Position numbers and translations under genes: made by a program
Shown: piece after piece, positions 12,462 through 63,657 of the stretch
Layout: every line of letters starts with the position of its first letter
Numbering within the stretch: the stretch's first letter is position 1
The notes under the pieces: model-generated
The model's database searches: none
What the model was told of the DNA's origin: nothing
Seen by the model: only the letters and a program-made list of their open reading frames with translations
Assembly: GCF_000012325.1 (NCBI RefSeq)
Contig: NC_003910.7
Coordinates: forward strand, 3,038,001-3,102,000
Direction of reading: 5' to 3'
Origin: Colwellia psychrerythraea 34H
Lineage (GTDB): Bacteria; Pseudomonadota; Gammaproteobacteria; Enterobacterales; Alteromonadaceae
DNA: 64,000 bases

Positions 12462-12538
12462 GCTCGCTTAGCTCAGTTGGTTAGAGTACTTGCATGACAT
12501 GCAAGGTGTCACAGGTTCGAGTCCCGTAGCGAGCACCA
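12462..12538 (+). tRNA. tRNA-Val (anticodon GAC)
   Basis: This is a complete cloverleaf of 77 nt with encoded CCA. The acceptor stem GCTCGCT pairs with AGCGAGC, followed by discriminator A and CCA (12536-12538). The D-arm is GCTCAGTTGGTTAGAGT, the anticodon stem CTTGC/GCAAG encloses loop ATGACAT with GAC at 12496-12498, and the T-loop is TTCGAGT. One A-C mismatch is present in the T stem. The 3' end serves as the attachment site of the island that follows. Confidence 0.97.
12519..12538 (+). other. attL: tRNA-Val 3' end used as the integration site
   Basis: The 20-bp sequence GAGTCCCGTAGCGAGCACCA at the tRNA 3' end recurs, with one A missing, at 61993-62011. Together with the integrase 166 bases downstream this defines the left boundary of the island. 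Confidence 0.85.
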
Positions 12539-12566
12539 AATACAGGTTCATTAAGAACCATTAAAG

Positions 12567-12606
12567 ACCCGTAAAGCCTTATAAAACAAGCTTTACGGGT
12601 TTTTTT
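12567..12606 (+). terminator. Intrinsic terminator after tRNA-Val
   Basis: A perfect 11-bp stem ACCCGTAAAGC / GCTTTACGGGT (12567-12577 and 12590-12600) with a 12-nt loop and six T residues. Lying inside the island, it was brought in by the element and now replaces the original tRNA terminator. Confidence 0.88.
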
Positions 12607-12648
12607 ATGTCCATTACCTTCCATTCCTGTCCCGTGACATCTGCACTT

Positions 12649-12703
12649 TTTAGTAGTACATTTAGTAGTACAGCATTTATCTAACAAAAGTTGTACTACT
12701 AAA
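12649..12703. repeat. Left arm-type repeats TTTAGTAGTACA
   Basis: Two direct copies abut each other at 12649-12660 and 12661-12672. One inverted copy (TGTACTACTAAA) at 12692-12703 ends at the base before the integrase ATG. The same repeat pair recurs at 61914-61937 near attR. Their position suggests integrase or excisionase arm sites that may also autoregulate the integrase. Confidence 0.7.
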
Positions 12704-13951
12704 ATGGCTAGAAAAGTAAAACCTCTTACCAATACTGAAGTTAAGCAGGCAAAGCCTAAAGATAAGATTTACAAGTTATCTGACGGCGATGGCTTACAAT
12801 TGCGCATAATGCCAAATGGCTCTAAACAATGGCTGTTAGACTACTTCAAACCTTACACAAAAAAACGTACCTCATTCAGCTTAGGATCATACCCTGATGT
12901 TACATTAGCCAATGCAAGAGCCAAGCGTGCATCTTCAAGAGAACTTTTAGCTCAAGACATCGACCCCAAAGAACATAAAGAAGACCACCACCGTGAACAA
13001 TTGCTTATCGCTAGCCACACTTTAAAGAGTGTTGCTGAAGATTGGTTTGCCATCAAAAAGACCACGATTACAGAAGTTACTGCTAAAAGCCTATGGCGTA
13101 AGTTTGAAAACCACGTTTTTCCAAAGCTAGGCCACAGGCCAATAGACAAAATATTAGCACCAGAGGCTATTGAAGCACTTAAGCCTTTAGCTGCTAAAGG
13201 TAACCTAGAAACAACAGGTAAAATCATTGGCCATTTAAACAACATAATGACCCATGCCGTAAATACGGGGATATTACATCACAATCCGTTATCAGGGATT
13301 CGTAGCGCATTCTCAGCCCCTAAAGTAACTAATATGCCCACCATTAAGCCTAATGAATTAGGTAAGCTAATGAAGGTCATCAGTTACGCCAGCATTAAGC
13401 TAGTCACCAGATGTTTAATTGAGTGGCAACTTCACACAATGACCAGGCCCAGCGAAAGCGCTAAAGCTGAGTGGTCAGAAATAGATTTAGAGAATAGATT
13501 ATGGGTTATTCCTGCTGAACGTATGAAAATGAGATTAGAGCATAAAGTACCACTGACCAAACAATCCATTGAAATACTTGAACGATTAAAGCCAATTACA
13601 GGCCATCGAACACACCTATTCCCTTCCCACATTAATCACCATAAACACTGCAACGTTGAAACAGCAAACAAAGCATTAATACGTATGGGCTATAAAAACA
13701 GATTAGTCGCTCATGGCTTACGTGCTTTAGCTAGCACTACTTTAAACGAACAAGAGTTTAATGCTGATGTTATCGAGTCTGCACTATCTCATGTCGATAA
13801 AAATGAAGTTAGACGTGCCTACAATCGTGCAGAATACCTTGATAGCAGGCGTGAACTAATGTGCTGGTGGAGTGAGCATATAGAGCAGGCAGTAAGTGGC
13901 AACTTACCTGTCTCAACGTTAAAAGAGCAAAAGATAATCTGCAACGAATGA
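12704..13951 (+). CDS. P4-type tyrosine integrase
   Basis: This site-specific recombinase inserts and excises the island at tRNA-Val. The 415-residue protein begins with the DUF4102-like arm-binding domain (LSDGDGLQLRIMPNGSKQWLLDY and SLGSYPDVTLANARAKR). A core-binding helical domain follows (about 100-200), then the catalytic domain with the Arg box MTRPSESAKAEW, the HGLRALASTTLNE box near residue 345 and SHVDKNEVRRAYNRAEY with the catalytic Tyr. It is oriented away from the tRNA and lies 166 bases from attL, the usual layout for P4-like islands. The ATG is contiguous with an inverted arm-type repeat. Confidence 0.95.
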   Translation: MARKVKPLTNTEVKQAKPKDKIYKLSDGDGLQLRIMPNGSKQWLLDYFKPYTKKRTSFSLGSYPDVTLANARAKRASSRELLAQDIDPKEHKEDHHREQLLIASHTLKSVAEDWFAIKKTTITEVTAKSLWRKFENHVFPKLGHRPIDKILAPEAIEALKPLAAKGNLETTGKIIGHLNNIMTHAVNTGILHHNPLSGIRSAFSAPKVTNMPTIKPNELGKLMKVISYASIKLVTRCLIEWQLHTMTRPSESAKAEWSEIDLENRLWVIPAERMKMRLEHKVPLTKQSIEILERLKPITGHRTHLFPSHINHHKHCNVETANKALIRMGYKNRLVAHGLRALASTTLNEQEFNADVIESALSHVDKNEVRRAYNRAEYLDSRRELMCWWSEHIEQAVSGNLPVSTLKEQKIICNE

Positions 13952-14114: not shown

Positions 14115-16310
14115 TTATTCCGTACCATTTTCTAATAAAGACTCCCAGATTTTCGAGTTTTCAATAACATCAACAAACGACTCTGAACTAAAGCCATTTT
14201 GATACAACGAATCAGCCTCTCTGTCATTTTCGTCATCACCATATAACTCAGTCATATCCATTAAAAGGTTAGCATCATCGTTTAATGCTATATGTAGCTC
14301 TTCAACAGAAACTTTTAAAAAATCATTAAAATATTCATGATCAAACTCCATACACGTATCAGCAATCCAACCAATAGCCGTGCAATGTGAACTTTCACCA
14401 ATTCCAAGTGATGATTTAAACTGATTGTCAGTTAATAAAAGATGCTTAACCGCATCAGTTTTGCGCTTTATTTGTAACCCTGCTTTCCTTAATGCATGGT
14501 TTTTATAACCTATAGCCTCCCTTTGACTACTTCTTCTATAAGTAGATTTCACTTCAATCACCAATACAAAGTCATCTAACTTACATATCAAGTCGATTTC
14601 ACCGGGGTTTATAGAATCACAACTAGAAGGCATATAACTATCAAGAACTGTAAAACCTCGTTTTCTGAAGGACTCACCAAGCCGCTCTTCAATTCTGGAG
14701 GTTTCATCCTTTAATTCAGGTCTGCTATTTGCAAAACGTCGAAGATTATTAATAGCATTAACGTTCGTTAATTGACATGCCATCATCCATGGAAGCTGCA
14801 CGCTATAGTTACCCAATTTAAAAATTGGACGTTCGGTCAATACTGGAAGTTTTTGTCTGTTACTATTTTGTAGTTCGCTGCCCCATTTTTTAAAATCAAG
14901 TGACCAAAAATCTAATATAGCCTCTGCCGCCTTTAAGTTACCCTTTGGAAAAACATCAGACACTGTCCAGCCAACTATGTTTTTAGCTTTTTGTTTCCAA
15001 TTGAGCCAGGTAATTGGGAATCGGTTTTGAAATTCATTATTAGTAGTATCAAGCAATCCACCCATTGCCAACATACTCAAAGCTCCTTGCCATTGCCCTG
15101 TATTTTCGTACTCTCTAAAAAACACTTCGATATAATCTTTATTGTAAAAAGCAAGCATCAACTCAAGTGATAACAAAGCTTGGAAAACTTCAACGTTCAT
15201 ACCATTATCAGTTGATACAGTTTTATCGACACCGTATATTTCACTCAGCAGTAAAGCTGATCCAAGAGCTTTGATATAAGCTGTTTGGTTCCACTGGTGA
15301 TAATATTTTGAGCCAATTTGTTGCTCTGCCATTCCTGAGTTTATAAACTCATTTAGCCCACGATAAAACCAATAACCATCGAGTAGATTAAGCTTTCTCC
15401 CGTTTAGGTCCCATGCTTGATTTACCACATTATCTAAAATGGTACGCTCTAATTGATTTCCGTTTAAAAAGTAACTTTCTTCATCATCAAAACAAAAGGG
15501 CACAACACTCCGTGATAAAAATTCATTGAGTTCAACTTGAGCCTGGATTAATTCAGAAAATTGAAAGAGAAGCGTTTCTGGAATAACAGAATCTTCATTA
15601 GATGGGAAGATAATTGGTGATAGGTGAACTTTCAGTGATTCGGCGATCTTCATTTCAGTTAATTTAAATGATACTGGTTCAGAAGTACTGATTTTCCACT
15701 CTACTATTTTCGTTAATGCAATAAACTTAGCCGTTGTAGATATTACTTCTCTATCCAAAGATAACTCCGGCTCTACAAAACCTTGAAATGCATATAAGCT
15801 TGAATAACTTAACACCTCAAAAATAGATAATTTTTCAAAAGGCTTTTGACATTGAGCAAGTAAATCTAGTCTTTGTTTATGTGCCAGTTGGAAACATTCA
15901 CAGACTTTAATTAACTTAGTCAACGAACCAGGCACAGTTTCACCTAATTTCTTTATCTCAGCCCATTTGTCACTTTCTGGCCTTAATACAACTTCAGAAT
16001 GCCGGACCCCCTTGCCAACTGACGATGGAGAGTTTTTTGCTATGTACTTTAACAAGTCAAAATTAGTTGTATTTCCTTGGGCGAAATAACGAGACAAAGC
16101 TAGAACAAAAGCATTAGAACTTAAAACTTCTGTACTGAAGTCCCAAATGACTTTGGAAGACCAAAACAGATTGTCTTTATTAACTTTTTTCTGTTTTTTT
16201 AATCTAATTGGTTTACCTGCAAGGTATGCATCTATGATTTCCAATGATGCTTCGTCACAACTGCAACCTCTTTCTAGTAAGGATGAATATTTCTGCTCAA
16301 AGTAATTCAT
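14115..16310 (-). CDS. Large protein with C-terminal PD-(D/E)XK nuclease-like domain
   Basis: This is the last gene of the eight-gene minus-strand operon. The first 500 or so residues match no family I recognise. Near the C terminus an ordered nuclease motif is visible: GEIDL with Asp573, then VLVIEVKS with Glu585 and Lys587, preceded by an RxxE helix (SRIEERLGESFRKRGF). This is the D-x(n)-E-x-K pattern of restriction-endonuclease-like folds. The sequence is rich in Trp and acidic residues and has no signal peptide or membrane segment. Cleavage of DNA or RNA is plausible but unproven. It starts 5 bases after its upstream neighbour, so co-expression is likely. Confidence 0.6.
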   Translation of the reverse strand: MNYFEQKYSSLLERGCSCDEASLEIIDAYLAGKPIRLKKQKKVNKDNLFWSSKVIWDFSTEVLSSNAFVLALSRYFAQGNTTNFDLLKYIAKNSPSSVGKGVRHSEVVLRPESDKWAEIKKLGETVPGSLTKLIKVCECFQLAHKQRLDLLAQCQKPFEKLSIFEVLSYSSLYAFQGFVEPELSLDREVISTTAKFIALTKIVEWKISTSEPVSFKLTEMKIAESLKVHLSPIIFPSNEDSVIPETLLFQFSELIQAQVELNEFLSRSVVPFCFDDEESYFLNGNQLERTILDNVVNQAWDLNGRKLNLLDGYWFYRGLNEFINSGMAEQQIGSKYYHQWNQTAYIKALGSALLLSEIYGVDKTVSTDNGMNVEVFQALLSLELMLAFYNKDYIEVFFREYENTGQWQGALSMLAMGGLLDTTNNEFQNRFPITWLNWKQKAKNIVGWTVSDVFPKGNLKAAEAILDFWSLDFKKWGSELQNSNRQKLPVLTERPIFKLGNYSVQLPWMMACQLTNVNAINNLRRFANSRPELKDETSRIEERLGESFRKRGFTVLDSYMPSSCDSINPGEIDLICKLDDFVLVIEVKSTYRRSSQREAIGYKNHALRKAGLQIKRKTDAVKHLLLTDNQFKSSLGIGESSHCTAIGWIADTCMEFDHEYFNDFLKVSVEELHIALNDDANLLMDMTELYGDDENDREADSLYQNGFSSESFVDVIENSKIWESLLENGTE

Positions 16311-16315
16311 AGTCT

Positions 16316-17563
16316 TTACCCTGCCATTAAGCTTTCTGTATTATTTCGATTTGTAGCAAATATTTTAAAAGCCTTGATTACTTCATCCAAATCTATCAAC
16401 TTAATATCTAATACTACTTGTTCATTTTCTGAGGCCATTGAGTTTAGAGAGCTAATTTGTTCGGCTCCTATATGATTGTTCTTAATTAACCATTTCCCTA
16501 ATAGTCTCATCATTTTTGATGACTCTATTAGCAATAAAGTAGTTTGTTCGATTCTTTTAGACAAATTTAATGCAAACTTTTTTTGACAAAAAGTTGTTAC
16601 ATCTCTTGATTCTACAAGTGCATAACCAAGAATGTCGCCAATTAACTTTTTACTATCATGAGTATCAAACGTTTCATCTCTTCGATGCTCCAGTAGTGGA
16701 GGTGTGTTGAAGAGTTTAAAGTTACAAGTGAAAGCATCTGAAGCCATGACCATATCACTACGACGACTAATAAAATTTGAATAGCGTAAAGAATCATTTT
16801 TACACAGTAAAACCTCAGAATTCAGTACAATTGTTGCTCCACCACGCTCTCGTCCGTTTGCAGGCGTTATCTTTGACGGTAGTTTTATGTTCCGAGTTGT
16901 AGCCTTACCCTTTACAAGACAGTCAATAAAATCATCCCATTTTAAGGTAGCGACATTCACGTTATAACGGTTAAAATCACGAGGGTTGAAAGAATAGAAG
17001 TCATGATGTGCATTGATTGAATCAGTGCTTGTAACTACCGATTCTACAGGACTAAGGTACTCATTTATCTGAAATATATCTCCCCCCACCCCGTCATCAC
17101 GAATTGCCAGCAAAACATCAAGTAAAGGACTCGTTCTAGTATATTCTTTTGGAATTGGTGAATCCCCTGATAATGTGCTGAAAGCCATATCACAACCCAA
17201 TTCGTTTAATTGGTTAATAATATTAATAAAACTCAGCTCAGGAAGGCTCCACAATAAATCGTCATCAAGTATAAAACCAATTCCTCCTCTTTCATTCATT
17301 TTTTGCTTAAGGTGCAATTGGCAAATGTTGCGGTTATCAACAATCGGTGGGTAATTAACGAAGCATTCAATCAAATCTACAGGTATAGAGAACTTACACG
17401 GTTTTATTGGTTGTGCCATACCAAATAGGAGCACAGACGCTTGAACATCAAAACTTGGTAATGCCTGTTGCATGCTTATTAATAAGCGATTGGCTACCTC
17501 TGGATGAGCTGTAGCTAATACCACATGTATATTTTTACTAAGATTCATCGTTATATAACGCAT
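16316..17563 (-). CDS. Unknown protein, possible GT-A-like nucleotide-sugar transferase
   Basis: I cannot place this 415-residue protein firmly. A hydrophobic N-terminal strand (NIHVVLATAHPEVANRLL), then a helix and later GIGFILDDDLLWSLPEL near residue 93 resemble the nucleotide-binding strand and the metal-binding DxD motif of GT-A glycosyltransferases. The C-terminal 150 residues are helical. It overlaps the upstream M20 gene by 26 bases if the first ATG is used, or 11 bases from the second ATG at 17548. Neither start has a strong ribosome-binding site. Tight coupling within the operon suggests it acts on the same substrate as the neighbouring enzymes. Confidence 0.45.
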   Translation of the reverse strand: MRYITMNLSKNIHVVLATAHPEVANRLLISMQQALPSFDVQASVLLFGMAQPIKPCKFSIPVDLIECFVNYPPIVDNRNICQLHLKQKMNERGGIGFILDDDLLWSLPELSFINIINQLNELGCDMAFSTLSGDSPIPKEYTRTSPLLDVLLAIRDDGVGGDIFQINEYLSPVESVVTSTDSINAHHDFYSFNPRDFNRYNVNVATLKWDDFIDCLVKGKATTRNIKLPSKITPANGRERGGATIVLNSEVLLCKNDSLRYSNFISRRSDMVMASDAFTCNFKLFNTPPLLEHRRDETFDTHDSKKLIGDILGYALVESRDVTTFCQKKFALNLSKRIEQTTLLLIESSKMMRLLGKWLIKNNHIGAEQISSLNSMASENEQVVLDIKLIDLDEVIKAFKIFATNRNNTESLMAG

Positions 17564-18380
17564 AATTAGCTAAGAATTTTTCAAACTGTTGCTGATGTTT
17601 TAACAATTTATTCTCATTCAACGATTCATTATCCCGATGAATAAAGTGTAAACGGTCATTAGGTCCAAATCCCATGTAAACAGCGTTTTTCGGTAAGTTA
17701 TATAGCAATGGACAAGCTTTTATACCATTCAATTTATTTAAATGTCTATATTCTATTCGGGGGCTGTCTAGGCTGCTTTCAAGTAAACTATGCCATGGTA
17801 TTAACTCCGAATCAGACTTATCCGGAGACCATAAAAACGCAATTTGCGTATTACTGTCTAAATCATTAAATCCTGTTTCTTCAATATACACCGGGGCACC
17901 AAATGCGGGTATTTCATCCTTAAAAATATCATGAGCAACCCTATCCCCCTGTGTAATCTCCTCTTCACCTTGAATTAACCACAGAATTTCAGGGATTGCT
18001 TTATCTGATAATATTAGGGATTTTAATGCGATCATACGGGCCATTAAAGGCCCTTTGTTATCAGCAATACCTCTTCCGTAAAGGCGGCCGTTAATATTTT
18101 CTAAGGTAAATGCTTCTTCACTGACCCAACTATTCAATTCTTTGACTGGAGCAACATCATAATGCCCATAAATCACAATTTTATTGTCACTTAGTCGCCC
18201 AGGGTAATGTGCAATAATTGTCGGCTGTTCGGTTTTCTCTATATCGGTAATACGAATATCAAAACCTAAACCCTCTAGAAATTTTATTACAAACGCTATT
18301 GCTTCAATATTGCCTTGAGGATGTCCTACAACTGAAGGCATCGCAATAAACTCTTTATAAATTGGTAATTCTAAACTCAT
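17538..18380 (-). CDS. M20-family metallopeptidase/amidohydrolase lacking the lid domain
   Basis: M20 enzymes hydrolyse amide bonds in peptides or acylated amino acids with two zinc ions. All expected ligand motifs are visible in order: IYGHYDVAPV near residue 70 (His and Asp), GRGIADNKGP near 102 (bridging Asp), QGEEEITQ near 136 (catalytic and ligand Glu), an IEET segment near 163, and a final His in RLHFIHRDNE near 250. Typical members have 370-480 residues. At 280 this one lacks most of the dimerisation/lid domain normally inserted between the Glu-Glu motif and the last His. It is therefore either a compact variant or an old internal deletion. It lies 78 bases after the AsnB-like gene. 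Confidence 0.75.
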   Translation of the reverse strand: MSLELPIYKEFIAMPSVVGHPQGNIEAIAFVIKFLEGLGFDIRITDIEKTEQPTIIAHYPGRLSDNKIVIYGHYDVAPVKELNSWVSEEAFTLENINGRLYGRGIADNKGPLMARMIALKSLILSDKAIPEILWLIQGEEEITQGDRVAHDIFKDEIPAFGAPVYIEETGFNDLDSNTQIAFLWSPDKSDSELIPWHSLLESSLDSPRIEYRHLNKLNGIKACPLLYNLPKNAVYMGFGPNDRLHFIHRDNESLNENKLLKHQQQFEKFLANYALYNDES

Positions 18381-18458
18381 CTCGGTAAATCACTGTTTTG
18401 TATGGAAGTAAGGAAAAATGGTGTGTTCATGTATTATTCGTCTGCCCACCTATTTCAA

Positions 18459-19958
18459 CTATTGGGTATTTATTGAAAATTCGATCTTTCGATATTTTAA
18501 GTCGCGCCGATCGATCATCTTATCAAAGGCTGGGTAATGAGAAAAATAATGATGATTAACTATGGGATAGTTAGCCAATGTTTTTTCAAAAATAGTCCTT
18601 AAAGCAACTCTTTCTGACTTAAACTCTTTCTGTAATTCATCTATTACCAATTTTTGCAAACCAGAAGTTATATCAAAGGACTCTTTTGGCGCATTAATTA
18701 TTGAATGTGGCAGTAAGTGTTTGAAAGTGTCTCTTAGTAGTGTCTTACCAATATTCATCGGTATATCGCAAAGGTTTTTTACATCCAGCATCATTGCGAT
18801 TTGAGTAACTCGTTGGTCTAGAAATGGGCAACGAGCCTCAACACTAAAACTTGCACTTATTAAATCTAAACGCCTTAACTCAGTGAAGTGCAAGTCTTTA
18901 ATTAAATTGGCTCTCATCTCAGTCGGATCATTGCGCCCATTGTACATGCCCTGATAACCACAGAAAAACTCGTCTGCACCTTCACCAGATAGCATGACTC
19001 GAATACCATCTTGATGAACCGCTTTGCATAAAAGTAGTGTAGCTAATCCATTAGATATAATTGATGGGTTATAACTCTTAGTGATATGGCACGTTTTTGT
19101 AATTAACTTAAGTAATTCATCTGCTGGAGGCGGCTTAATTAAATGAACACGGCTGAGGCAAATATTCAAATGTTCTAATAATGCTAATACTGAATCAGGG
19201 TATCTTTCGCCAACGACATAATAATGTGCATTTTCACTTAACCTAGCCTCTAAGATATAGGCAATAATAGAGCTATCTAAACCGCCACTAAGTGCAACAG
19301 CAAAAGGCCTGTTTTTTGGAACACGAAGCGATATCGCGTCCTCTAGAGTATCAATAAGGTTTGATTCATTACCTTTTATTGGCAAGTGACTATATTCTTT
19401 AAAGGTATTGCCCGTTTTTATATCAAACGCCGAAATCCCTGGTGGCACTACCTTTATTTCAGTTGTTTTTTCATCAACATAGTTAAAATCTATTCCTGTA
19501 CCTACATGCCAACCAATTCTACTATTCCATACTAACAGTGGTTTTTTACCAACATGATCTGTAAAAATTTCACATTGGCCCGTTATTTTATTAAATAGGA
19601 AACCTGAGTACATTCCATTTGACCGCATCAAGGTATCAAGTAATCCGTAGCATTCGATATGTTTAAAAAAAGTACTTACATCGTTAAATTTAGTCGGATC
19701 AATATTCAACCGTGCTGCTAGCTCTTGGTAGTTATATATCTCACCATTCAATACCAAAACCTGAGAATTACTTTGTAACGGTTGGTTTACCTCTGGTTCA
19801 GTTATATAGAGATGCGAAAACTCAAAATATAAACATGAACCATTTGAATAAAAAACGTCTGAATTGTAAGAGTCTAAACCACGCAACAACGTGTCAGGTC
19901 CAACTTTTTCATTAAAATCAACTAGATTTTTAGTAACGCTAACAACAAAGCCACACAT
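18459..19958 (-). CDS. AsnB-type glutamine-dependent asparagine synthetase-like amidotransferase
   Basis: This 499-residue protein has an N-terminal class II glutaminase domain with nucleophile Cys2 (MCGFVVSV) and the substrate-binding VLNGEIYNYQEL. The C-terminal synthetase domain has the PP-loop SGGLDSS near residue 225 and LSGEGADEFFCGY near 325. AsnB uses ATP to activate aspartate and glutamine-derived ammonia to amidate it. In biosynthetic clusters the same fold amidates other acids or closes beta-lactam rings. The gene overlaps its upstream neighbour by one base and sits among acyl-transfer and amidohydrolase genes. A non-housekeeping substrate is therefore plausible, but the sequence does not show which. 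Confidence 0.88.
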   Translation of the reverse strand: MCGFVVSVTKNLVDFNEKVGPDTLLRGLDSYNSDVFYSNGSCLYFEFSHLYITEPEVNQPLQSNSQVLVLNGEIYNYQELAARLNIDPTKFNDVSTFFKHIECYGLLDTLMRSNGMYSGFLFNKITGQCEIFTDHVGKKPLLVWNSRIGWHVGTGIDFNYVDEKTTEIKVVPPGISAFDIKTGNTFKEYSHLPIKGNESNLIDTLEDAISLRVPKNRPFAVALSGGLDSSIIAYILEARLSENAHYYVVGERYPDSVLALLEHLNICLSRVHLIKPPPADELLKLITKTCHITKSYNPSIISNGLATLLLCKAVHQDGIRVMLSGEGADEFFCGYQGMYNGRNDPTEMRANLIKDLHFTELRRLDLISASFSVEARCPFLDQRVTQIAMMLDVKNLCDIPMNIGKTLLRDTFKHLLPHSIINAPKESFDITSGLQKLVIDELQKEFKSERVALRTIFEKTLANYPIVNHHYFSHYPAFDKMIDRRDLKYRKIEFSINTQ

Positions 19959-20638
19959 TAATTAATACTCTTCAAATACATAGTTAGATCAGGCGTTAAC
20001 TCCGGAAAGTGAGCATGAACATAACTGATTAACTCAGATGGTGTTAAACTACATTCCTGACAGGGTTTACCTGATTCGTACAAAGCTAAATTGAAGCCTG
20101 AAATCCTATGAAATTGTTCGTTTTGCAACCAACTAAGCCTAAGTTCATTACTGTAAGGCAACGGTTTGAGATATCGGTTGGGAAATTTAGCTAATATTGA
20201 CTCTTCATTTTGCTTTGCGACTGAAATACGGTTCATGTCACGCCACTTCAATCCCTCATACCTCTTAATTAGTAAATAATCTTGCTCTCTAATAATTCTG
20301 AAGTGTATTCCAGCCGTTGTATTTTCATACTCAACGTCTTTCAGGTTAGCCTGGTATAACGTTGGCCACCCAGACCCTGTATCTAGAAAAGCCACTTCAT
20401 TTGGAAGCACTACCCTTACTAAACGGTGCGATTTATCACCTGTTAGGCAAACCTCTGCTTCATGTAATGTAGCTTCAAAACCTCTTCCTACCAGCTCAGA
20501 TCGAAGCTTTAGTGCATGGTCAAAACATGTACCACCATTAAGAGTTTCTTTATTTAGTAATTGCGCTAAATTATGAAATGGAAAGCTTTGTAATTGGTTC
20601 CTTAGTAAGGTTAAAAGTTCGTGGTTTAACTCAAACAT
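19958..20638 (-). CDS. Arylamine N-acetyltransferase-like acyltransferase
   Basis: The 226-residue protein resembles the NAT family, which transfers an acyl group from CoA via a Cys-His-Asp triad. Visible elements are FPFHNL (usually PFENL), the nucleophile in GGTCFDHALKLRSEL near residue 38, His in KSHRLVRVVLP near 70 and Asp in VAFLDTGSGWP near 85. The triad spacing is as expected, although the protein is shorter than the usual 270-280 residues and lacks much of the third domain. NAT-fold proteins also act as amide synthases in natural-product pathways. It overlaps the deacetylase gene by 8 bases and the AsnB gene by one, so it is translationally coupled to both. Confidence 0.7.
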   Translation of the reverse strand: MFELNHELLTLLRNQLQSFPFHNLAQLLNKETLNGGTCFDHALKLRSELVGRGFEATLHEAEVCLTGDKSHRLVRVVLPNEVAFLDTGSGWPTLYQANLKDVEYENTTAGIHFRIIREQDYLLIKRYEGLKWRDMNRISVAKQNEESILAKFPNRYLKPLPYSNELRLSWLQNEQFHRISGFNLALYESGKPCQECSLTPSELISYVHAHFPELTPDLTMYLKSIN

Positions 20639-21431
20639 TATAATCTTCCGTCACATGTACCCTTCTTAATACAGCTGAATCTAAGGTATCACAATCCACT
20701 CCAAGTAGAATTTGACCAACTGATTGACTCAGTTTTATGACTTGCTCATTATGTTTGCCATGAGGAAAACAAATAGAAACAGCAGACATACTCCCAAGTG
20801 ATTTTAGCCAATTCAAACTACCTATTAATTCAGAATAAAGTTCAGATGAAGTAAGGTTAATGAATGCTCTATGACTACGCCCATGAATACCAAGCTCAAT
20901 ACCTTGCGCACAATAGCGCTTTAGCTGTTGTTCCGACATAAACAAATCACTATTATCGGCATCAATAGTTATGCTAAACCAATGCTTTCTATAATACCGG
21001 TACCTTAATGCTGACATGCCTCGTAGTAGTTTTTTTATTCGCCCCCCTAGCAATGATTGAAGGAGGCTTGGGGTAATATCATTGCTTGCCATTACATGTT
21101 GAGCCATATCATCAATAGGTGAAAAACCCGTTAAAGAAAAATCTTTTACTGGGAATACCGTTGCTGTCATACCACGTCTAATCAATTCATCTAACGCATT
21201 ACAGTTATCTTCATAACCATCATCAAAAGTAATAAATACATCTTGGTCTGTAAACCCCATCGTTATGTTAGAAATAGGTTTAGTTTTCCAACTATTCATT
21301 TCAATTAGGTCGAGCAGCTCTATGAACTTATTCCAGCTAATAGCGGTTTTTCGCTGAAAGTAATAATCATCTTCATCATAATGCTCAATAACCCGATGAA
21401 GCATATAAATTCTAGGCTGTTGTTTCATCAT
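20631..21431 (-). CDS. Polysaccharide deacetylase (NodB homology domain)
   Basis: The NodB fold removes acetyl groups from N-acetylated sugars (carbohydrate esterase 4) using a metal held by Asp-His-His. Motif 1 is VFITFDDGYEDN and motif 2 is GIHGRSH (H-x3-H), both intact. The frame is open to 21497, which would overlap the upstream gene by 86 bases. I prefer the ATG-ATG pair at 21431/21428, because GGAG at 21441-21438 precedes it by 6 bases and the protein then starts MMKQQPRIYMLHRV, aligned with family N termini (about 266 residues). No signal peptide is seen, so it should act in the cytoplasm, unlike cell-wall deacetylases. Confidence 0.82.
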   Translation of the reverse strand: MMKQQPRIYMLHRVIEHYDEDDYYFQRKTAISWNKFIELLDLIEMNSWKTKPISNITMGFTDQDVFITFDDGYEDNCNALDELIRRGMTATVFPVKDFSLTGFSPIDDMAQHVMASNDITPSLLQSLLGGRIKKLLRGMSALRYRYYRKHWFSITIDADNSDLFMSEQQLKRYCAQGIELGIHGRSHRAFINLTSSELYSELIGSLNWLKSLGSMSAVSICFPHGKHNEQVIKLSQSVGQILLGVDCDTLDSAVLRRVHVTEDYNV

Positions 21432-22389
21432 TATGGTCTCCAATAATCGAGAATATACGAGAACCATTTGAGTGGCTAAAATCGTAAAAATCGGCAATAG
21501 CTAATGAAGCTAAATCAATACGATAAACCCCAGTGCGCGTATCTTCTATCGGTCTTTTCAACCAATTTGTACGACTACACTCCTTATGAATCGCAGTAAT
21601 GCCAACATAAATTGAATCATCTGTTACTAATAAGCCCCGGCACCATCCCTCAGATTTAGTCGTTTGAAATAAATCAAAAAACAATTCGAACTGTAGAGGT
21701 AATGATAATGAAGAACGATATATTTGCCCTGAAACGGTGGTTATCCAGATATAGCTTTGATCTACATAGCCATCATGTGGTTGGGTAGGTAAGTCATTAC
21801 TTAGTGGCTGCATTGTTCTGGCATCGAGTAAATGCTTCTTCTTGAAACTGGTTGCTATAATCCTGTTATCTAAGCGTTCTCCAGCCTTAATGACATGATT
21901 GATGTGCCAAGTATCAGGTACTTTTCGAAGGTGAAATTCAATTGCTGAAGTTTCATTATCGTAATAGTCACCTTTAGTACTATATTGCCCTTTAACACGC
22001 ACAGCTACTTCCGCATCTGACAGAAAATCTAATCGGCTAACAGGATGAAATTGATGATCTAATATATCAATGCAATCACGGCCGGTATTTGCGAGGTAAA
22101 CTCCCTGTCCTTCTACACTTATATGATGCAAATCATTATATTGTTCATCTTGTCTTATCTGTGTTAACTCACATAGAGCAAGGTCGAAGATAAAAACCCG
22201 ATTAAAGTCACATCCAACAAGTTGTTGATCGTTAATCCAAGCAATACTTGTAATACCTTTACCAACAACATCTCGGCCTGAACTAGGCAATGTAGCTAAT
22301 AATCGTTTGTGCTTGGTTTCTGTATCAAGTTGCCATAATTCACTTTTGGGTTCACCAAAAAAGTAACTGATAGGAATGAATAACTTCAC
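21412..22389 (-). CDS. Beta-propeller-like protein of unknown function
   Basis: The 325-residue protein shows recurring short strands of the type ITSIAWINDQQLVGCD, YNDLHHISVEGQGVYLAN, IWITTVSGQIYRSS and LLVTDDSIYVGITA, about 45-60 residues apart, each ending with Asp or Thr-Gly. This is the look of a six- or seven-bladed propeller. No enzymatic motif is obvious. Clusters with glycosyltransferase-like and deacetylase genes sometimes include such proteins as binding or lactonase-like partners. It overlaps the SLOG gene by 4 bases (ATGA type), so the two are translationally coupled. Confidence 0.5.
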   Translation of the reverse strand: MKLFIPISYFFGEPKSELWQLDTETKHKRLLATLPSSGRDVVGKGITSIAWINDQQLVGCDFNRVFIFDLALCELTQIRQDEQYNDLHHISVEGQGVYLANTGRDCIDILDHQFHPVSRLDFLSDAEVAVRVKGQYSTKGDYYDNETSAIEFHLRKVPDTWHINHVIKAGERLDNRIIATSFKKKHLLDARTMQPLSNDLPTQPHDGYVDQSYIWITTVSGQIYRSSLSLPLQFELFFDLFQTTKSEGWCRGLLVTDDSIYVGITAIHKECSRTNWLKRPIEDTRTGVYRIDLASLAIADFYDFSHSNGSRIFSIIGDHNDETTA

Positions 22390-22934
22390 CTGTTATGGCC
22401 ACTATTAATACAGCCACTATTAGGAACAATCGTAGATAGACTTTTCAGTGTTTTTCGTAGCTCATCGAGGCTATGTATATGGTAAAGTCTTGAGTTACAT
22501 CGTTGGTCAAGGTATTCATCGGTTAGCTTATCAGCCCAGCCTCCAGAACCTTTCATCAAAAGTATCGGTTTATTAAATTGGGATGCTAAGGCAACTTCAC
22601 TCAACGTTCCTGCACCACCACCTAAAACGACAACAGCAAATCCACTAGCTACAACTAATTGATTTCGCCCAACATCTAACCCTGATGGAATGACAATATC
22701 AATGAATTCATTGGCTGTATCAGCCTTTATTGAGGGTAAAATCCCGATAGTCTGACATGGCATGTCACCCGATTTATGTCCGATGCAACTTGCTTCCATC
22801 ACACCACCTAGCCCACCACAAACTAAATGAAACCCTAACTCATTAATAATTAGGCCAACTGATTCAGCCATATGCTGCAAAATAGATAATTTAATTCTGG
22901 CGTTACCAATTACAGCAACTTGAGGAAATGACAA
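22386..22934 (-). CDS. SLOG/TIGR00725-type nucleotide-binding protein
   Basis: This is the first gene of the operon. The 182-residue protein has a Rossmann-like fold typical of the LOG/SLOG superfamily: QVAVIGNARI at the N terminus, VCGGLGGVMEASCIGH near residue 40 and VVVLGGGAGTLSEVALASQF near 103, matching the PGGxGTxxE motif with its catalytic Glu. Relatives either hydrolyse nucleotide-sugar bonds (LOG phosphoribohydrolases) or sense nucleotide-derived ligands in defence systems. It starts about 50 bases from a perfect 17-bp inverted repeat in the divergent promoter region. Which of the two roles applies cannot be read from sequence. Confidence 0.78.
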   Translation of the reverse strand: MSFPQVAVIGNARIKLSILQHMAESVGLIINELGFHLVCGGLGGVMEASCIGHKSGDMPCQTIGILPSIKADTANEFIDIVIPSGLDVGRNQLVVASGFAVVVLGGGAGTLSEVALASQFNKPILLMKGSGGWADKLTDEYLDQRCNSRLYHIHSLDELRKTLKSLSTIVPNSGCINSGHNR

Positions 22935-22982
22935 TCTACGGCTCCATGTAAAAAGAATTTTTATTTTTAAAAGAAATGATTA

Positions 22983-23019
22983 TATATAATATATTGATTG
23001 TTAATCAATATATTATATA
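22983..23019. promoter_or_regulatory. Perfect 17-bp inverted repeat in divergent promoter region
   Basis: TATATAATATATTGATT (22983-22999) and its exact complement (23003-23019) flank the spacer GTT. It lies centrally between the divergent genes at 22934 (minus) and 23072 (plus), so it is placed to act as an operator on both. It could instead form a hairpin in either transcript, but it has no G/C core or T-tract like a terminator. Confidence 0.65.
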
Positions 23020-23071
23020 AACTCTAGATTATCACTGAACAAAAAATATAATTACAGAAGGAGGGACTAGT

Positions 23072-23803
23072 TTGTCTAATATGATAAGTATTGTTGGTAT
23101 AGGCTCAGGAAACCGTGTGGAAGAATTAACCATCAAAGCTTATAACACCCTTAAAAATTCAGATATAGGCATTTATCCTGGAAATTTTATTGGTGAAGAA
23201 CTCAAAGAGCTATTCGAAGATAAAACGATGTTTACCGGACGAGATATCACATCCGAAAAAATAAAAAACATTTTCCACAACAATAGAGATAAAAACATTT
23301 GCCTCATGGTATCCGGAGATCCAGCACTATATTCTGGGCAATTCAATACGAATTTATGTCTAGATGAACACATAAAATGGTTTAATGAACACAATTATAA
23401 TTATGAGATGATCCCAGGGCTAAGTAGTCTCAGTATTTTATGTGCAAAAAAAAGTATCGACCTTACACCCTTCTCAAAAACTCAAAATGTATTTATTACA
23501 AGTATTGAACGGTTACGAGATTTGAAATGCTTTAATTACACTGAGTTAAAGTCTATTCTCTCTACAAAGCCTGTACTTGCTCTTTATCAATCATTGAAAG
23601 AATTCGATAATATTAAGAGTCTATTGATGGAGTTTTATCCTCCTACCACAAAAGTAATTTTTGCTCAGTCTTTATCATGGAGTAATGAATGCATTTTTGA
23701 GACTGATCTTAAGACGCTCAATGAAACCGAATCAACAACCAGCCAATTTAATGATCAAACATTAATACTGGTATACCCGTCAACTATTCTGACTATCAAA
23801 TAA
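23072..23803 (+). CDS. Tetrapyrrole-methylase-family SAM methyltransferase (CbiF/CobM-like, orphan)
   Basis: This family transfers methyl groups from SAM to precorrins, or in other branches to peptides or diphthamide precursors. Matching motifs are ISIVGIGSGNRVEELTIKA at the N terminus, LMVSGDPALYSGQ near residue 90 and PGLSSLSILCAKKSIDLT near 117. This most resembles precorrin-4 C11-methylase. No other cobalamin genes are nearby. An excellent AAGGAGGG at 23058-23065 lies 6 bases before TTG at 23072, which I take as the start. The ATG at 23081 is 15 bases away and less likely. Three bases separate its stop from the next gene, so the two form an operon. Confidence 0.75.
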   Translation: MSNMISIVGIGSGNRVEELTIKAYNTLKNSDIGIYPGNFIGEELKELFEDKTMFTGRDITSEKIKNIFHNNRDKNICLMVSGDPALYSGQFNTNLCLDEHIKWFNEHNYNYEMIPGLSSLSILCAKKSIDLTPFSKTQNVFITSIERLRDLKCFNYTELKSILSTKPVLALYQSLKEFDNIKSLLMEFYPPTTKVIFAQSLSWSNECIFETDLKTLNETESTTSQFNDQTLILVYPSTILTIK

Positions 23804-23806
23804 CAC

Positions 23807-24721
23807 ATGAATTATTTAAATACCTCATGGCTTGGGCATTTTGTTAAAGTTCCTAAAGGTCAGTTTTCGATGGGTAACTCTAGTGCATACACGTCGTTAT
23901 TTGGAAAAAAATTAATTGAACGACCTCAAGCAAGAAAAGTCCATACCGTTGCGGTAACTCAAGAAATTGCAGTGTTAGAAACACCTGTTACGAATTCAAT
24001 GTTTCAACATTACCTAAAAGCTCAGCCAGAATCTTTGAATGAAATGGAATTTAGCTTTATCGCTAACAAAGCATACTTCTCTGACTATTATTTCAAAAAC
24101 AAGTCAGAAAAATCGTTAAAAGATAAAATAGAGTGGCAATCAAAAAATCTACTAAATTACATTAATAAGGCTGAAAATAGTAACCTACCTGTTGTCGGTG
24201 TTGATTACTTCACGTGTATTAATTACTGTCACTGGCTATCAAGTAAGCTCAATTGTAAAGTGAGACTGCTTACTGAGGCTGAATGGGAGTATTGTGCAAG
24301 AGCTGGTACAGATACCATTTTTTCTTGGGGAAATGAGATATCGCCTGTAGCAAAACATGCATGGTTCTTTGATAACGCAAAGTTAAATATAAAAATGGTT
24401 AAGCAACTAGCGCCGAACAATTGGGGCTTATATGATATGACAGGTAACGTATGGGAGTGGTGTGCCGACAAATATAGCCAAAAATTTTACGATTACTCCA
24501 ATAAAAAAGATCCCAAATCGACACATGGCAACTGTAAAAGATATGTTATCTGAGGTGGCAGTGCATTAAATAAAGCGGAAACAACCAGAGTTACCCATCG
24601 TTTTGGTTTACCGCCGAATATAAGAAATGAATTTTTGGGCTTCAGAATTGTAATTGAACGGCCTGTCAAAGGTTATTCAGAGCTTGTATCACAAAAATTA
24701 ATTACAATTAGTGGATATTAA
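23807..24721 (+). pseudogene. Formylglycine-generating-enzyme-like protein interrupted by an in-frame TGA
   Basis: The SUMF1/FGE-sulfatase fold is shown by VPKGQFSMGNS, ETPVTNSMFQHY, PVVGVDYFTCINYCHWLS, RLLTEAEWEYCARAGT and NWGLYDMTGNVWEWCAD. The frame stops at TGA (24551-24553) after RYVI. It remains open in the same frame for 55 further codons that encode the rest of the domain: GGSALNKAET, TRVTHRFGLPP and EFLGFRIVIERP, ending at TAA 24719-24721. The family consensus at the stop position is Arg before GGS (RGGSW), so a single C-to-T change of CGA to TGA explains it. The truncated 248-residue product lacks conserved core. Function in this cluster is unknown. Confidence 0.8.
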
Positions 24722-25392
24722 CGTTTTACAATCTCAACCATAATTTGACCTCTGGGGTGAGCGTATTCACTTTTACATTCTTTTAGCTTAAATCCATTCC
24801 TTTCAACTAAATTTTCAAAAAAATCAAACGGATAATAGAAATTTTTAAAGCCAACCTCTCGATACTCAACGCTATTATTATAAGTAAAATAAAAAGCCGA
24901 ATCCTCGTTCATGATCTGACCAATATTCTCAAAGCATTCAGATATATGCTCAGGTTTCAAATGGGTAAATACTGATTGAGCAAATATAAAGTCAAATGTT
25001 TTACCTAAATAACAATTAAAATTAAGGCTCTTATTTTTATCCAAAAGTAGCTGAGGCTTTTTATCCGATAGCTTTTCTTCAACAACTAATTCCTTAGCCG
25101 ATTCAATAGCCTTAAATGAAATATCTACACCGTAATAGTTTGAGCTATTTAAATACTTTATAAAATGTCGCCCTCCCCTTAGGGTACCGCAGCCAATATC
25201 AAGCAATTCATGATGGCATTGGAGACCTTTTTTAGTTAAGTACTCAAACTGAAGCTTGCCAATCTCTTCCCACATACCTCCAATTGCTAACTTAGGATCA
25301 ACATCCACACGTAGATCTGTATGCCGACTGTATGCCTCTAGGTATTCATGTTCGTTGTAAATAGCCTTTACTCGTTCGCAGGATTCATCCAT
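24718..25392 (-). CDS. Class I SAM-dependent methyltransferase
   Basis: The 224-residue protein has the Rossmann methyltransferase core: motif I LLDIGCGTLRGGRHFI near residue 65, an acidic YYGVDISFKAIE after strand 2, FDFIFAQSVFTHL (motif IV region) near 130, and a C-terminal strand pair. The substrate cannot be told. It overlaps the end of the FGE-like gene by four bases tail to tail (24718-24721) and has its own upstream region of about 350 bases, so it is probably transcribed alone. Confidence 0.82.
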   Translation of the reverse strand: MDESCERVKAIYNEHEYLEAYSRHTDLRVDVDPKLAIGGMWEEIGKLQFEYLTKKGLQCHHELLDIGCGTLRGGRHFIKYLNSSNYYGVDISFKAIESAKELVVEEKLSDKKPQLLLDKNKSLNFNCYLGKTFDFIFAQSVFTHLKPEHISECFENIGQIMNEDSAFYFTYNNSVEYREVGFKNFYYPFDFFENLVERNGFKLKECKSEYAHPRGQIMVEIVKR

Positions 25393-26765: not shown

Positions 26766-27740
26766 TTAATTGTTAAATTGAGATTCAACATACTTCCAAA
26801 GAGTAACATTTGGATCTTTTGTTTCTCTCCATACAGGGGAAGACAACCGTTTATCCATATAGATTTCTAAAGCATTAAACATTTGAAAAACTTTTTTATC
26901 TCCCTCAAAAGAGAAAGTTTCAAAAAATTTATCTTCCAACATATCTAGAGTTTCAAAATCAATAACCCCATTGTTCATTGCCCAATGGATAGATAAAACA
27001 GGGATAGTGTTCTTTCTAATGCTAACAGGCATTATTGAATCAATACTTATATTTAATTCTAATGCATCACGTTTCTTGTTCCTTAATACAAGCGCTTCTT
27101 TTTCTCTAAAAGACTCAACTAAATCATCAAATGCTTGTTCTCTTTGACTTTCAGACTCATTAGGAACTAATCTGCAAAATTTTACAGCTTCAATTGCTCT
27201 ATCGTTGCCATATAAGGTGAGTACTCGATTTAAAAAGTTTTTATTCAAAAAGAAGGTTTTACTTAAATAATTTAACATCCCAGTAAAGTTGCTAAATGCA
27301 AGACCATCAAATTCAAATGTTTCTTCAGGCAATATCTCTCTAACCGGTATACCGTCAATACATAGATCCCACGCTTTGAAGTTGACTCTTTCTTTTGCGA
27401 TAAGAAACATTTCCCAACCGCTTTTCTTGAAACCTTCAAACGCATTACCAGTAAAATCTGATTCATTTAACTCTTTTTCTGTCCAATTTGAACCTATCGA
27501 CAACTCTTTGCTGCTGCGAATAATAATTTTATCTTTAATAGTTTGCTTGAGTTCTTCTAAAGAACTCGCTAAGGGGTGACATCCATATGACTGGCATTCA
27601 TCACAAGTAGGTATAGATATCATATCTAGTCCGCCCTTTACCTCTTGGTCTCTGACTTCTATATTTGTGTGAGAGTTTTCACCACAAAACCAACACTTGA
27701 AACGACAATCAAACGGTATATCTATATCTAGCAGATCCAT
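26766..27740 (-). CDS. Unknown protein with two N-terminal Cys pairs
   Basis: I do not recognise this 324-residue protein. It begins with two zinc-ribbon-like cysteine pairs, CWFC near residue 16 and CDEC near residue 46, an arrangement seen in HNH-like and RNA/DNA-binding proteins. A following His (GCHPL) could be a further ligand. The rest is mixed helix and strand, with a Trp-rich stretch and an acidic, helical C-terminal half. It lies in the minus-strand unit 63-residue ORF - this gene - folE, with 14- and 20-base gaps, and that unit diverges from queD. A role linked to the dpd system is suggested only by position. Confidence 0.6.
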   Translation of the reverse strand: MDLLDIDIPFDCRFKCWFCGENSHTNIEVRDQEVKGGLDMISIPTCDECQSYGCHPLASSLEELKQTIKDKIIIRSSKELSIGSNWTEKELNESDFTGNAFEGFKKSGWEMFLIAKERVNFKAWDLCIDGIPVREILPEETFEFDGLAFSNFTGMLNYLSKTFFLNKNFLNRVLTLYGNDRAIEAVKFCRLVPNESESQREQAFDDLVESFREKEALVLRNKKRDALELNISIDSIMPVSIRKNTIPVLSIHWAMNNGVIDFETLDMLEDKFFETFSFEGDKKVFQMFNALEIYMDKRLSSPVWRETKDPNVTLWKYVESQFNN

Positions 27741-63352: not shown

Positions 63353-63657
63353 TTTTTTAGGATATACAGCTCCTCCTTGAGTGCTTTATTTTCACGTTCA
63401 AGTTGCTGTTCTTTGGTCAGTACTTTTTTGGCTTTTGATTGCCCTGCCACTTTTTTTCGTTTATCCACCACAATGATCCCTTCACGATATTCTTTTCGCC
63501 ATCGTGACAGCATAAATGGGTGTATGTCGAGTTTTTCAGCGACAGATTTGATTGTGACGCCGACAACAAAACTCAGTTGAACAGCATTGACTTTAAAGTC
63601 GTTTGAATACTTCCAAGTTCGTCTTGGATTGTTGTACTTTGGCATAAGACACCTCAT
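63283..63657 (-). CDS. IS3-family transposase OrfA
   Basis: This 124-residue DNA-binding subunit has the HTH of the transposase_8 type (FKVNAVQLSFVVGVTIKSVAEKLDIHPFMLSRWRKEY region: SVAEKLDIHPFMLSRW) followed by a leucine-zipper-like coiled coil (LTKEQQLERENKALKEELYI), as usual in IS3 elements. The first residue of the frame could be at 63657, but the conserved start is MPKYNNPRRTW at 63645 (ATG). It ends in the overlap with OrfB. Confidence 0.9.
   Translation of the reverse strand: MRCLMPKYNNPRRTWKYSNDFKVNAVQLSFVVGVTIKSVAEKLDIHPFMLSRWRKEYREGIIVVDKRKKVAGQSKAKKVLTKEQQLERENKALKEELYILKKWQRFLAEEHQVDIDSSKNSEPT

What the first reader, a model, noticed from the sequence alone, without database searches (positions are those of the whole stretch)
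14115..25392. Unassigned divergent gene cluster with amide-bond, acyl-transfer and nuclease-like functions
Eight minus-strand genes overlap or nearly touch: SLOG protein, propeller-like protein, NodB deacetylase, NAT-like acyltransferase, AsnB-type amidotransferase, lid-less M20 amidohydrolase, GT-A-like protein and a PD-(D/E)XK protein. Divergent from them are an orphan tetrapyrrole-family methylase and an FGE-like gene, and a separate methyltransferase follows. I know no named defence or natural-product system with this set. Two readings fit: a small-molecule or sugar-conjugate pathway with its own amide ligation and hydrolysis steps, or a defence system that makes a modification or signal and ends in a nuclease effector. 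The two cannot be told apart by sequence.
Basis: partly seen in the sequence, partly recalled or inferred. Interest (0 to 1): 0.85.

Follow-up and report, generated by a model that had tools for sequence, protein, structure and literature searches.

The report
Mobile sugar-amide pathway in defence islands
A marine bacterium carries, on a movable stretch of DNA next to anti-virus genes, a conserved set of seven enzyme-like genes that look built to make an unknown sugar-containing small molecule inside the cell; the same set recurs in distant bacteria, but its product and purpose are unknown.

Summary
The genes are real and correctly placed, but the recurring unit is seven genes, not eight or eleven. 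SLOG, propeller, NodB deacetylase, NAT-type acyltransferase, AsnB-type amidotransferase, lid-less M20 hydrolase and a GT-A-fold protein occur together in another Colwellia, Spongorhabdus and Arsukibacterium. A contig-cut copy lies in an Osedax symbiont. SAR324, Rhodopirellula and one gammaproteobacterial MAG have a variant in which AsnB + short NAT is replaced by PhyH dioxygenase + long NAT. Catalytic residues are conserved and no protein shows a signal or membrane segment. The PD-(D/E)XK (NERD) gene is independent: relatives lie in three related genomes and eight plasmid records without the cluster. The TP-methylase and FGE genes find no match beside six of the seven other copies; the seventh has a different FGE-type neighbour. 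The window copy sits in a tRNA-Val island beside a complete Dpd locus (dpdA-K). Four of the seven other loci have defence-type neighbours (Ssp; type IV-like; patatin/TIR; generic UvrD helicases), three do not. None of the seven proteins matches a PADLOC model. Best reading: a horizontally moving cytosolic pathway for a glycosylated, N-acyl/amide-decorated small molecule. An anti-phage role is plausible but unproven; the nuclease-effector version is not supported.

The parts
22386..22934 (-). SLOG (LDcluster4/TIGR00725-like) protein, 182 aa; conserved Arg and GGGxGTLSE motif; C-terminal SGH tail in 5 of 6 orthologues
   Evidence: PF18306 2.4e-30; TIGR00725 101.3 bits, just under its cut-off of 106.9; alignment of 6 orthologues
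21412..22389 (-). beta-propeller (six-bladed by its best matches), 325 aa, invariant His88, His162-x-Asn164, His205-Asp206, Arg251
   Evidence: AF2 pLDDT 92.6; fold matches; 37 homologues; alignment A2 of 23
20631..21431 (-). NodB-type polysaccharide deacetylase, apparently cytosolic (start probably the ATG near 21431)
   Evidence: PF01522 4.9e-14; (T/S)FDDGY, HGx(S/T)HR and C(F/Y)PHG conserved in 7 of 7 loci aligned; no signal or membrane segment by hydropathy
19958..20638 (-). arylamine N-acetyltransferase-like acyltransferase, short form, Cys-His-Asp conserved
   Evidence: PF00797 39.1 bits against cut-off 22.8; alignment of 7
18459..19958 (-). AsnB-type glutamine-dependent amidotransferase/ligase, 499 aa, Cys2 and SGGLDSS conserved
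   Evidence: PF00733 2.2e-40, PF13537 2.1e-12; alignment of 5
17538..18380 (-). lid-less M20 amidohydrolase, 280 aa
   Evidence: PF01546; H73, D107, E140, E141, E168 and H248 invariant in A3, 22 sequences; 238 homologues at 1e-20
16316..17563 (-). GT-A-fold putative glycosyltransferase, 415 aa, invariant DDD (100-102), unnamed sequence family
   Evidence: 47 homologues; A1 of 26; AF2 pLDDT 87.2; GT-A matches
14115..16310 (-). NERD/PD-(D/E)XK nuclease, 731 aa: adjacent, NOT part of the conserved unit
   Evidence: PADLOC Viperin-associated NERD 3.5e-15; other contexts
12462..12538 (+). tRNA-Val(gac), probable integration site of the island
   Evidence: NorM-tRNA-integrase stretch also aligned end to end or nearly so in related genomes
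12704..13951 (+). tyrosine-type integrase of the island
   Evidence: PF00589 1.9e-27, PF13356 9.9e-25; 83-88% identical copies beside the same NorM gene in G007, G016, G024 and a fragment (81% over 103 residues) in G012

Best explanation
A self-contained, horizontally moving biosynthetic operon that makes a soluble glycosylated small molecule in the cytosol. Proposed logic: the GT-A enzyme transfers a sugar (probably an N-acetylamino sugar) to a small acceptor. The cytosolic NodB deacetylase, with the propeller protein, frees the amine. The NAT-like enzyme re-acylates it from an acyl thioester. AsnB turns a carboxylate (for example a uronic acid) into an amide, or in other lineages a PhyH dioxygenase hydroxylates the scaffold instead. 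The lid-less M20 hydrolase removes or exchanges an acyl/aminoacyl group. The SLOG protein releases or carries a nucleotide-type piece. Shown: gene set, order, recurrence, alternative modules, intact catalytic residues, no signal or membrane segment by hydropathy, folds of GT and propeller. Seen by eye only: no exporter, polymerase or flippase within the unit. Inferred: substrates, order of steps, product. The use (protection against phages is my first guess, from the company it keeps) is inferred only.
For: Same seven genes in L004 (same order), L005 (plus a nucleotide-sugar dehydrogenase between AsnB and M20) and L006 (AsnB and NAT divergent); contig-cut copy in L003. Long NAT + PhyH in place of short NAT + AsnB in L007, L008, L012. 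Equal contig lengths link GT and propeller hits 7 times and GT and M20 hits 19 times, own genome included (my count from the tables, a proxy for the same contig); locus tags QM504_05540/05575 and KAG56_08335/08315. Distances between loci co-vary for M20-GT (r=0.85, permutation p=0.0015, 8 loci) and NodB-GT (r=0.81, p=0.029, 7 loci), not for the exchanged NAT against GT (r=-0.04) or NodB (r=0.11). Catalytic residues kept; hydropathy. Distant propeller relatives lie in exopolysaccharide-type loci, with a NodB-like ORF in 3 of 4 and an AsnB-like ORF in 1 of 4 fetched. Defence-type neighbours: Ssp, mREase_IV, patatin/TIR, UvrD, Dpd.
Against: No substrate is fixed by sequence. L012 lacks the propeller gene; L007 lacks SLOG in the about 465 bases that its contig holds before the propeller. 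NAT distances do co-vary with SLOG (r=0.53, p=0.002) and weakly with M20 (r=0.34, p=0.029), so the 'exchanged module' reading of the distances is not clean; SLOG-GT is r=0.62, p=0.056. L003, L007 and L012 show no defence-type neighbour beyond one weak hit, and the UvrD hits of L004 are generic helicases. L012 has an FGE-type gene next to GT. SLOG relatives in the PDB include a Moco carrier protein, so SLOG need not be catalytic. Rare: 2 of 147 (NAT), 2 of 369, 1 of 247, 1 of 299 (GT), own genome included each time; propeller 3 strong of 395, plus 14 weak distant matches.
Confidence: 0.55

Rival explanations
1. Surface-glycan tailoring: the cluster decorates envelope polysaccharide or LPS precursors in the cytosol (deacetylation, amidation, acylation, side-branch sugar), perhaps masking phage receptors.
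For: Distant propeller relatives sit in exopolysaccharide-type loci with polymerase- and flippase-like genes (by eye), with a NodB-like ORF in 3 of 4 and AsnB-like in 1 of 4; GT fold close to TarP, WrtF and RmlT.
Against: No polymerase, flippase or export gene seen within the unit in the ORF lists (by eye); no membrane segment in the unit's proteins by hydropathy; SLOG is unexplained.
Confidence: 0.22
2. Anti-phage small molecule: a glycosylated nucleoside-like or amide compound that poisons phage replication, comparable in outcome to ddhNTPs of viperins (recalled); M20 or NAT switches it between inert acylated and active form.
Against: AvpGT is one of many GT-A matches; no kinase, sensor, effector, self-resistance or transporter gene recognised in the unit; three loci without defence neighbours beyond one weak hit.
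Confidence: 0.25
3. Eight-gene defence system with the NERD nuclease as effector (second reading of the first reader).
For: 5-bp spacing to GT; PADLOC NERD hit.
Against: Nuclease gave no match in L003-L008 and no such ORF in L012; its relatives lie elsewhere in G010, G035, G082 and on 8 plasmid records, where GT, propeller and M20 have no match.
Confidence: 0.04
4. Amidated dipeptide or osmolyte pathway of the N-acetylglutaminylglutamine amide type.
For: AsnB is an amidotransferase relative (TIGR03104 82.1 bits) and an M20 hydrolase is present.
Against: Score far under the TIGR03104 cut-off of 570.1; the partner synthetase (ATP-grasp/GNAT, recalled) is not seen; GT and NodB unexplained.
Confidence: 0.05

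Closest known systems
Exopolysaccharide-type loci of related genomes (same family) with a distant propeller + NodB-like (once AsnB-like) ORF
   Same: homologous propeller (hhalign 99.4% for two of them; HMM E 1e-19 to 5e-20 in all four), NodB-like ORF in 3 of 4 (6e-6 to 4e-15), AsnB-like in 1 of 4 (3e-37)
   Different: those loci carry polymerase- and flippase-like genes and several GTs (by eye); the island cluster has SLOG, M20, NAT and its own GT family instead
Peptidyl-nucleoside antibiotic pathways (blasticidin S, gougerotin; pathway details recalled, shared CGA core from passages of PMC5572114)
   Same: logic of base release, sugar transfer, uronic acid amidation and protective acylation
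   Different: no homologous CMP hydrolase or CGA synthase was tested or shown; resemblance is by analogy only
AvpGT/NucGT nucleoside 3'-O-glucosyltransferases (GT2)
   Different: no sequence match of the GT profile in the PDB at E 0.1; equal or better matches to B4GALNT1, GalNAc-transferases, RmlT, MtdL, WrtF
Arylsulfate sulfotransferase ASST propeller
   Different: hhalign against two AssT-type proteins 0.2% probability
Viperin-associated NERD (PADLOC)
   Same: C-terminal part of the adjacent 731-aa protein
   Different: the nuclease is not part of the unit, and no radical-SAM gene is in the unit

Membership tests
Known defence system (PADLOC-DB) | at least one core protein matches a PADLOC model | tested here: not met
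   none of the seven proteins hits at E 0.01; the adjacent nuclease does
Dpd 7-deazaguanine system | cluster travels with dpd genes | tested here: not met
   Dpd genes lie at about 26-52 kb of the window; of the Dpd-region genes queried (FolE to DpdJ, not DpdE-H) none matched in L003-L008
Glycosyltransferase GT-A superfamily | GT-A fold with DxD-type metal motif | tested here: met
CAZy family placement of GT415 | sequence membership in a numbered GT family | tested here: inconclusive
   no Pfam GT family, no PDB sequence match; CAZy itself was not searched
Arylamine N-acetyltransferase (PF00797) | score over curated cut-off and Cys-His-Asp triad | tested here: met
   39.1 vs 22.8 bits, triad in 7 of 7 aligned; the L006 copy scores 20.7, just under the cut-off
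Asparagine synthetase (TIGR01536 equivalog) | score over the equivalog cut-off | tested here: not met
   161 vs 267.1 bits: AsnB-type, different substrate likely
Canonical M20 peptidase | catalytic domain plus inserted lid/dimerisation domain (recalled) | tested here: not met
   280 aa; matches the N-terminal part of longer Pfam and NCBIfam profiles; metal ligands conserved
N-acetylglutaminylglutamine amide pathway | TIGR03104 amidotransferase | tested here: not met
   82.1 vs 570.1 bits
Exopolysaccharide assembly locus | polymerase or flippase in the unit | tested here: not met
   none recognised by eye in the ORF lists of the unit; no membrane segment in unit proteins
Lonely-guy-type nucleotide phosphoribohydrolase | catalytic Arg and PGGxGTxxE motif (recalled), activity | tested here: inconclusive
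   Arg and GGGxGTLSE conserved in 6 of 6 but the CtkRMPhLog model scores 24.6 vs cut-off 300 and a Moco carrier is among PDB relatives
Nucleoside antibiotic (CGA) pathway | CMP hydrolase and cytosine/UDP-GlcA transferase | not tested
   no such reference proteins were compared
Arylsulfate sulfotransferase (PF05935) | sequence homology to AssT | tested here: not met
   hhalign 0.2% against two AssT-type proteins; the own genome has no PF05935 match at E 0.001

The most novel reading that the evidence does not exclude
A chemically new class of bacterial immunity: a mobile seven-gene pathway, with exchangeable tailoring modules, that makes an intracellular glycosyl-amide or nucleoside-like antiviral compound, unrelated to viperins, cyclic oligonucleotides or DNA modification.
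Probability: 0.2. Interest if true: 0.92.

Novelty: new variant of a known kind. Interest (0 to 1): 0.62.

Why it matters
It defines a conserved, mobile enzyme set, including two protein families without a named function (GT415 and its propeller), that can be cloned as one unit of about 6.6 kb and tested at once for a new metabolite and for phage protection. If the product is antiviral, it would add a chemical-synthesis branch to bacterial immunity; if not, it is still an undescribed glycan/small-molecule pathway found in several phyla.

Tried and rejected
Rejected: chance juxtaposition (synteny in several loci). Nuclease as component. TP-methylase, FGE and methyltransferase as components: no match in L003-L008. 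One result against this: L012 has an FGE-type ORF (410 aa, PF03781 3e-29) 160 bp downstream of GT; it is a different subtype (23% identity over 115 columns to the window's FGE), so I read it as unrelated, but an FGE link is not excluded. The TP-methylase is about 25% identical to plasmid-borne CobM-type enzymes. Propeller as sulfotransferase: suggested by ASST rows in VIA, not supported by hhalign. Osmolyte amide. Borosin idea for the TP-methylase: one paper in the listing, no precursor ORF that I could recognise; dropped.

Led nowhere: GT in plasmids and phages, propeller in plasmids, NAT in phages, M20 in plasmids at 1e-20 and phages at 1e-10, GT and M20 profiles in viral contigs: no match. 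First genome-contig scan with one sequence confirmed no relative. A second copy of the tRNA 3' end marking the right island border was not found in the window (up to 3 mismatches) or own genome (up to 2). A second clade of lid-less M20 proteins (about 36-45% identical) could not be placed; 180 genomes gave only the own copy at E 1e-45. Paper searches; none of the listings named this gene set in title or abstract; four of the ten returned no paper. PMC12839542, PMC11888242, PMC5572114 and PMC11959488 were only searched for terms.

PADLOC neighbour scans outside the window used 30 chosen proteins, not all neighbours. One further equal contig length (1,853 bases, M20 P0095 and GT P0020) was left out because the two have different sources.
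Full report
WHAT WAS CHECKED. The 'propeller-like' protein scores only weakly to DUF4915 (20.5 bits, cut-off 35). The 'GT-A-like' 415-aa protein has no Pfam family of its own. The nuclease is a weak UPF0102/NERD match in Pfam but a clear PADLOC 'Viperin-associated NERD' match (3.5e-15). None of the seven other minus-strand proteins matches a PADLOC model at E 0.01. The genome is a Colwellia-like bacterium: a genome of the same genus (G029) has a contig of the same length (65,693) as the Colwellia sp. D2M02 record.

THE REAL UNIT IS SEVEN GENES. TBLASTN of window proteins against L001-L008 and ORF lists give this. L004 (Colwellia D2M02): SLOG, propeller, NodB, NAT, AsnB, M20, GT in identical order. 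L005 (Spongorhabdus): the same with a UDP-glucose/GDP-mannose dehydrogenase-type gene between AsnB and M20. L006 (Arsukibacterium): SLOG, propeller, NodB, M20, GT in order, AsnB and NAT divergent beside them. L003 (Osedax symbiont): NAT(cut)-AsnB-M20-GT at a contig end. L007 (SAR324 MAG) and L008 (Rhodopirellula MAG): propeller-NodB-NAT(long)-PhyH-M20-GT, with SLOG first in L008; in L007 no SLOG lies in the about 465 bases before the propeller, where the contig begins. L012: SLOG-NodB-NAT(long)-PhyH-M20-GT without the propeller. So NodB, M20 and GT are the steady core, usually with SLOG and propeller, and the middle is an exchangeable module: AsnB + short NAT, or PhyH dioxygenase + long NAT.

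CO-VARIATION. Distances between loci agree for M20-GT (r=0.85, permutation p=0.0015, 8 loci), NodB-GT (0.81, p=0.029, 7), NodB-M20 (0.77, p=0.0035), SLOG-M20 (0.78, p=0.017), SLOG-NodB (0.76, p=0.0135), less for SLOG-GT (0.62, p=0.056, 6 loci). NAT does not follow GT (-0.04) or NodB (0.11) but does co-vary with SLOG (0.53, p=0.002) and weakly with M20 (0.34, p=0.029). In the large protein set, 7 of 37 propeller hits share an exact longest-contig length with one of 47 GT hits, and 19 of 47 GT hits with one of the 120 listed of 238 M20 hits, own genome included (my own count). Equal length is a proxy for the same contig and could be chance for some short ones; two pairs are backed by neighbouring locus tags.

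WHAT DOES NOT BELONG. The NERD nuclease, 5 bp downstream of GT, gives no match in L003-L008 and no such ORF in L012. In 197 related genomes it occurs in three besides the own one (88, 61 and 30% identity), in stretches without any cluster gene, and on 8 of 72,556 plasmid records, where GT, propeller and M20 find nothing. TP-methylase, FGE and methyltransferase gave no match in L003-L008. L012 does have an FGE-type gene beside GT (PF03781 3e-29), but of a different subtype. The nuclease-effector story is therefore not supported.

SETTING. The window cluster lies just inside an island at tRNA-Val(gac) with a phage-type integrase. The same NorM-tRNA-Val-integrase arrangement with other cargo is found in G007, G016 and G024 and, with an integrase fragment, in G012; G024 carries a SIR2/STAND protein there that matches LmuA. 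So the site is a hot-spot. To the right is a complete Dpd locus: DpdA to DpdK all match PADLOC, with GTP cyclohydrolase I, PTPS/QueD and QueC; the QueE-like ORF is a weak radical-SAM match. Elsewhere: L006 beside SspB/C/D and PbeA with WYL proteins, L005 beside a type IV restriction-like helicase (1.5e-103), L008 beside a patatin effector-type (3.9e-46) and a TIR protein (8e-8), L004 beside UvrD-type helicases (GajB-like, generic). L003 and L012 showed none among the neighbours scanned, L007 one weak CARF hit of a MarR-like protein (5e-6). So five of eight loci including the window, or four if the generic helicases are dropped. This is suggestive, not a measured enrichment; 30 chosen neighbours outside the window were scanned.

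HOW IT MOST LIKELY WORKS. I commit to a cytosolic pathway for a glycosylated small molecule with an N-acyl/amide-decorated sugar or sugar acid, carried on islands (confidence 0.55 for the pathway; about one in four for an anti-phage compound). GT sets the sugar; NodB with the propeller frees an amine; NAT acylates; AsnB amidates a carboxylate or, in the other lineage, PhyH hydroxylates; M20 trims an acyl group; SLOG handles a nucleotide-type piece. The dehydrogenase in L005 would supply a uronic acid, which makes a uronamide a sensible guess for the AsnB step. All substrates are inference.

NOVELTY. Ten paper searches did not list a paper that names this set in title or abstract; subscription papers are not held. 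It is not a member of any system for which a defining feature was tested. It works like a small glyco-conjugate biosynthetic cluster, so I file it as a new variant of a known kind, with a bolder reading kept open.

Noticed in passing
window 26197-52449: Complete Dpd locus: DpdA, B, C, D, E, F, G, H, I, J, K all match PADLOC, with GTP cyclohydrolase I, PTPS/QueD and QueC and a QueE-like ORF (weak radical SAM match).
   Followed up: yes
window 32811-33848: 345-aa ORF inside the Dpd locus matches the PADLOC candidate PDC-S31 (2.8e-27).
   Followed up: partly
window 12462-13951; L050, L051, L052, L053: tRNA-Val(gac) beside a NorM gene is an integration hot-spot in this genus; G024 carries a 1193-aa SIR2/STAND protein matching LmuA there instead.
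   Followed up: partly
window 23072-24553: TP-methylase about 25% identical to CobM-type enzymes, followed by an FGE-like gene that ends about 39 profile positions early; not found beside the cluster in L003-L008.
   Followed up: partly
L012 7479-8711: FGE-type 410-aa ORF (PF03781 3e-29) 160 bp downstream of the GT gene, a different subtype from the window's FGE.
   Followed up: partly
window 14115-16310; plasmid hits H9-H16: NERD nuclease recurs on Vibrio, Aeromonas, Rhodoferax, Pseudomonas and Arcobacter plasmid records, probably a stand-alone defence gene.
   Followed up: partly
L032, L033, L034, L035: Uncharacterised propeller family (331-341 aa) in exopolysaccharide-type loci, beside NodB-like ORFs in 3 of 4; several of the invariant His motifs recur by eye.
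   Followed up: partly
P0154-P0204: A second clade of lid-less M20 proteins (mostly 262-280 aa, about 38-45% identical over the longer alignments), context unknown.
   Followed up: no
L008 7208-12290: Rhodopirellula MAG: patatin effector-type protein, a membrane-like protein, a 178-aa ORF without Pfam match and a TIR-type protein in a row; looks like a conflict system.
   Followed up: partly
window 26766-27740: 324-aa ORF with CxxC pairs between FolE- and QueD-type genes; no Pfam or PADLOC match.
   Followed up: partly
window 62465-63657: Overlapping transposase-like ORFs; the 295-aa one matches rve and HTH_21, IS3-type by recall.
   Followed up: partly
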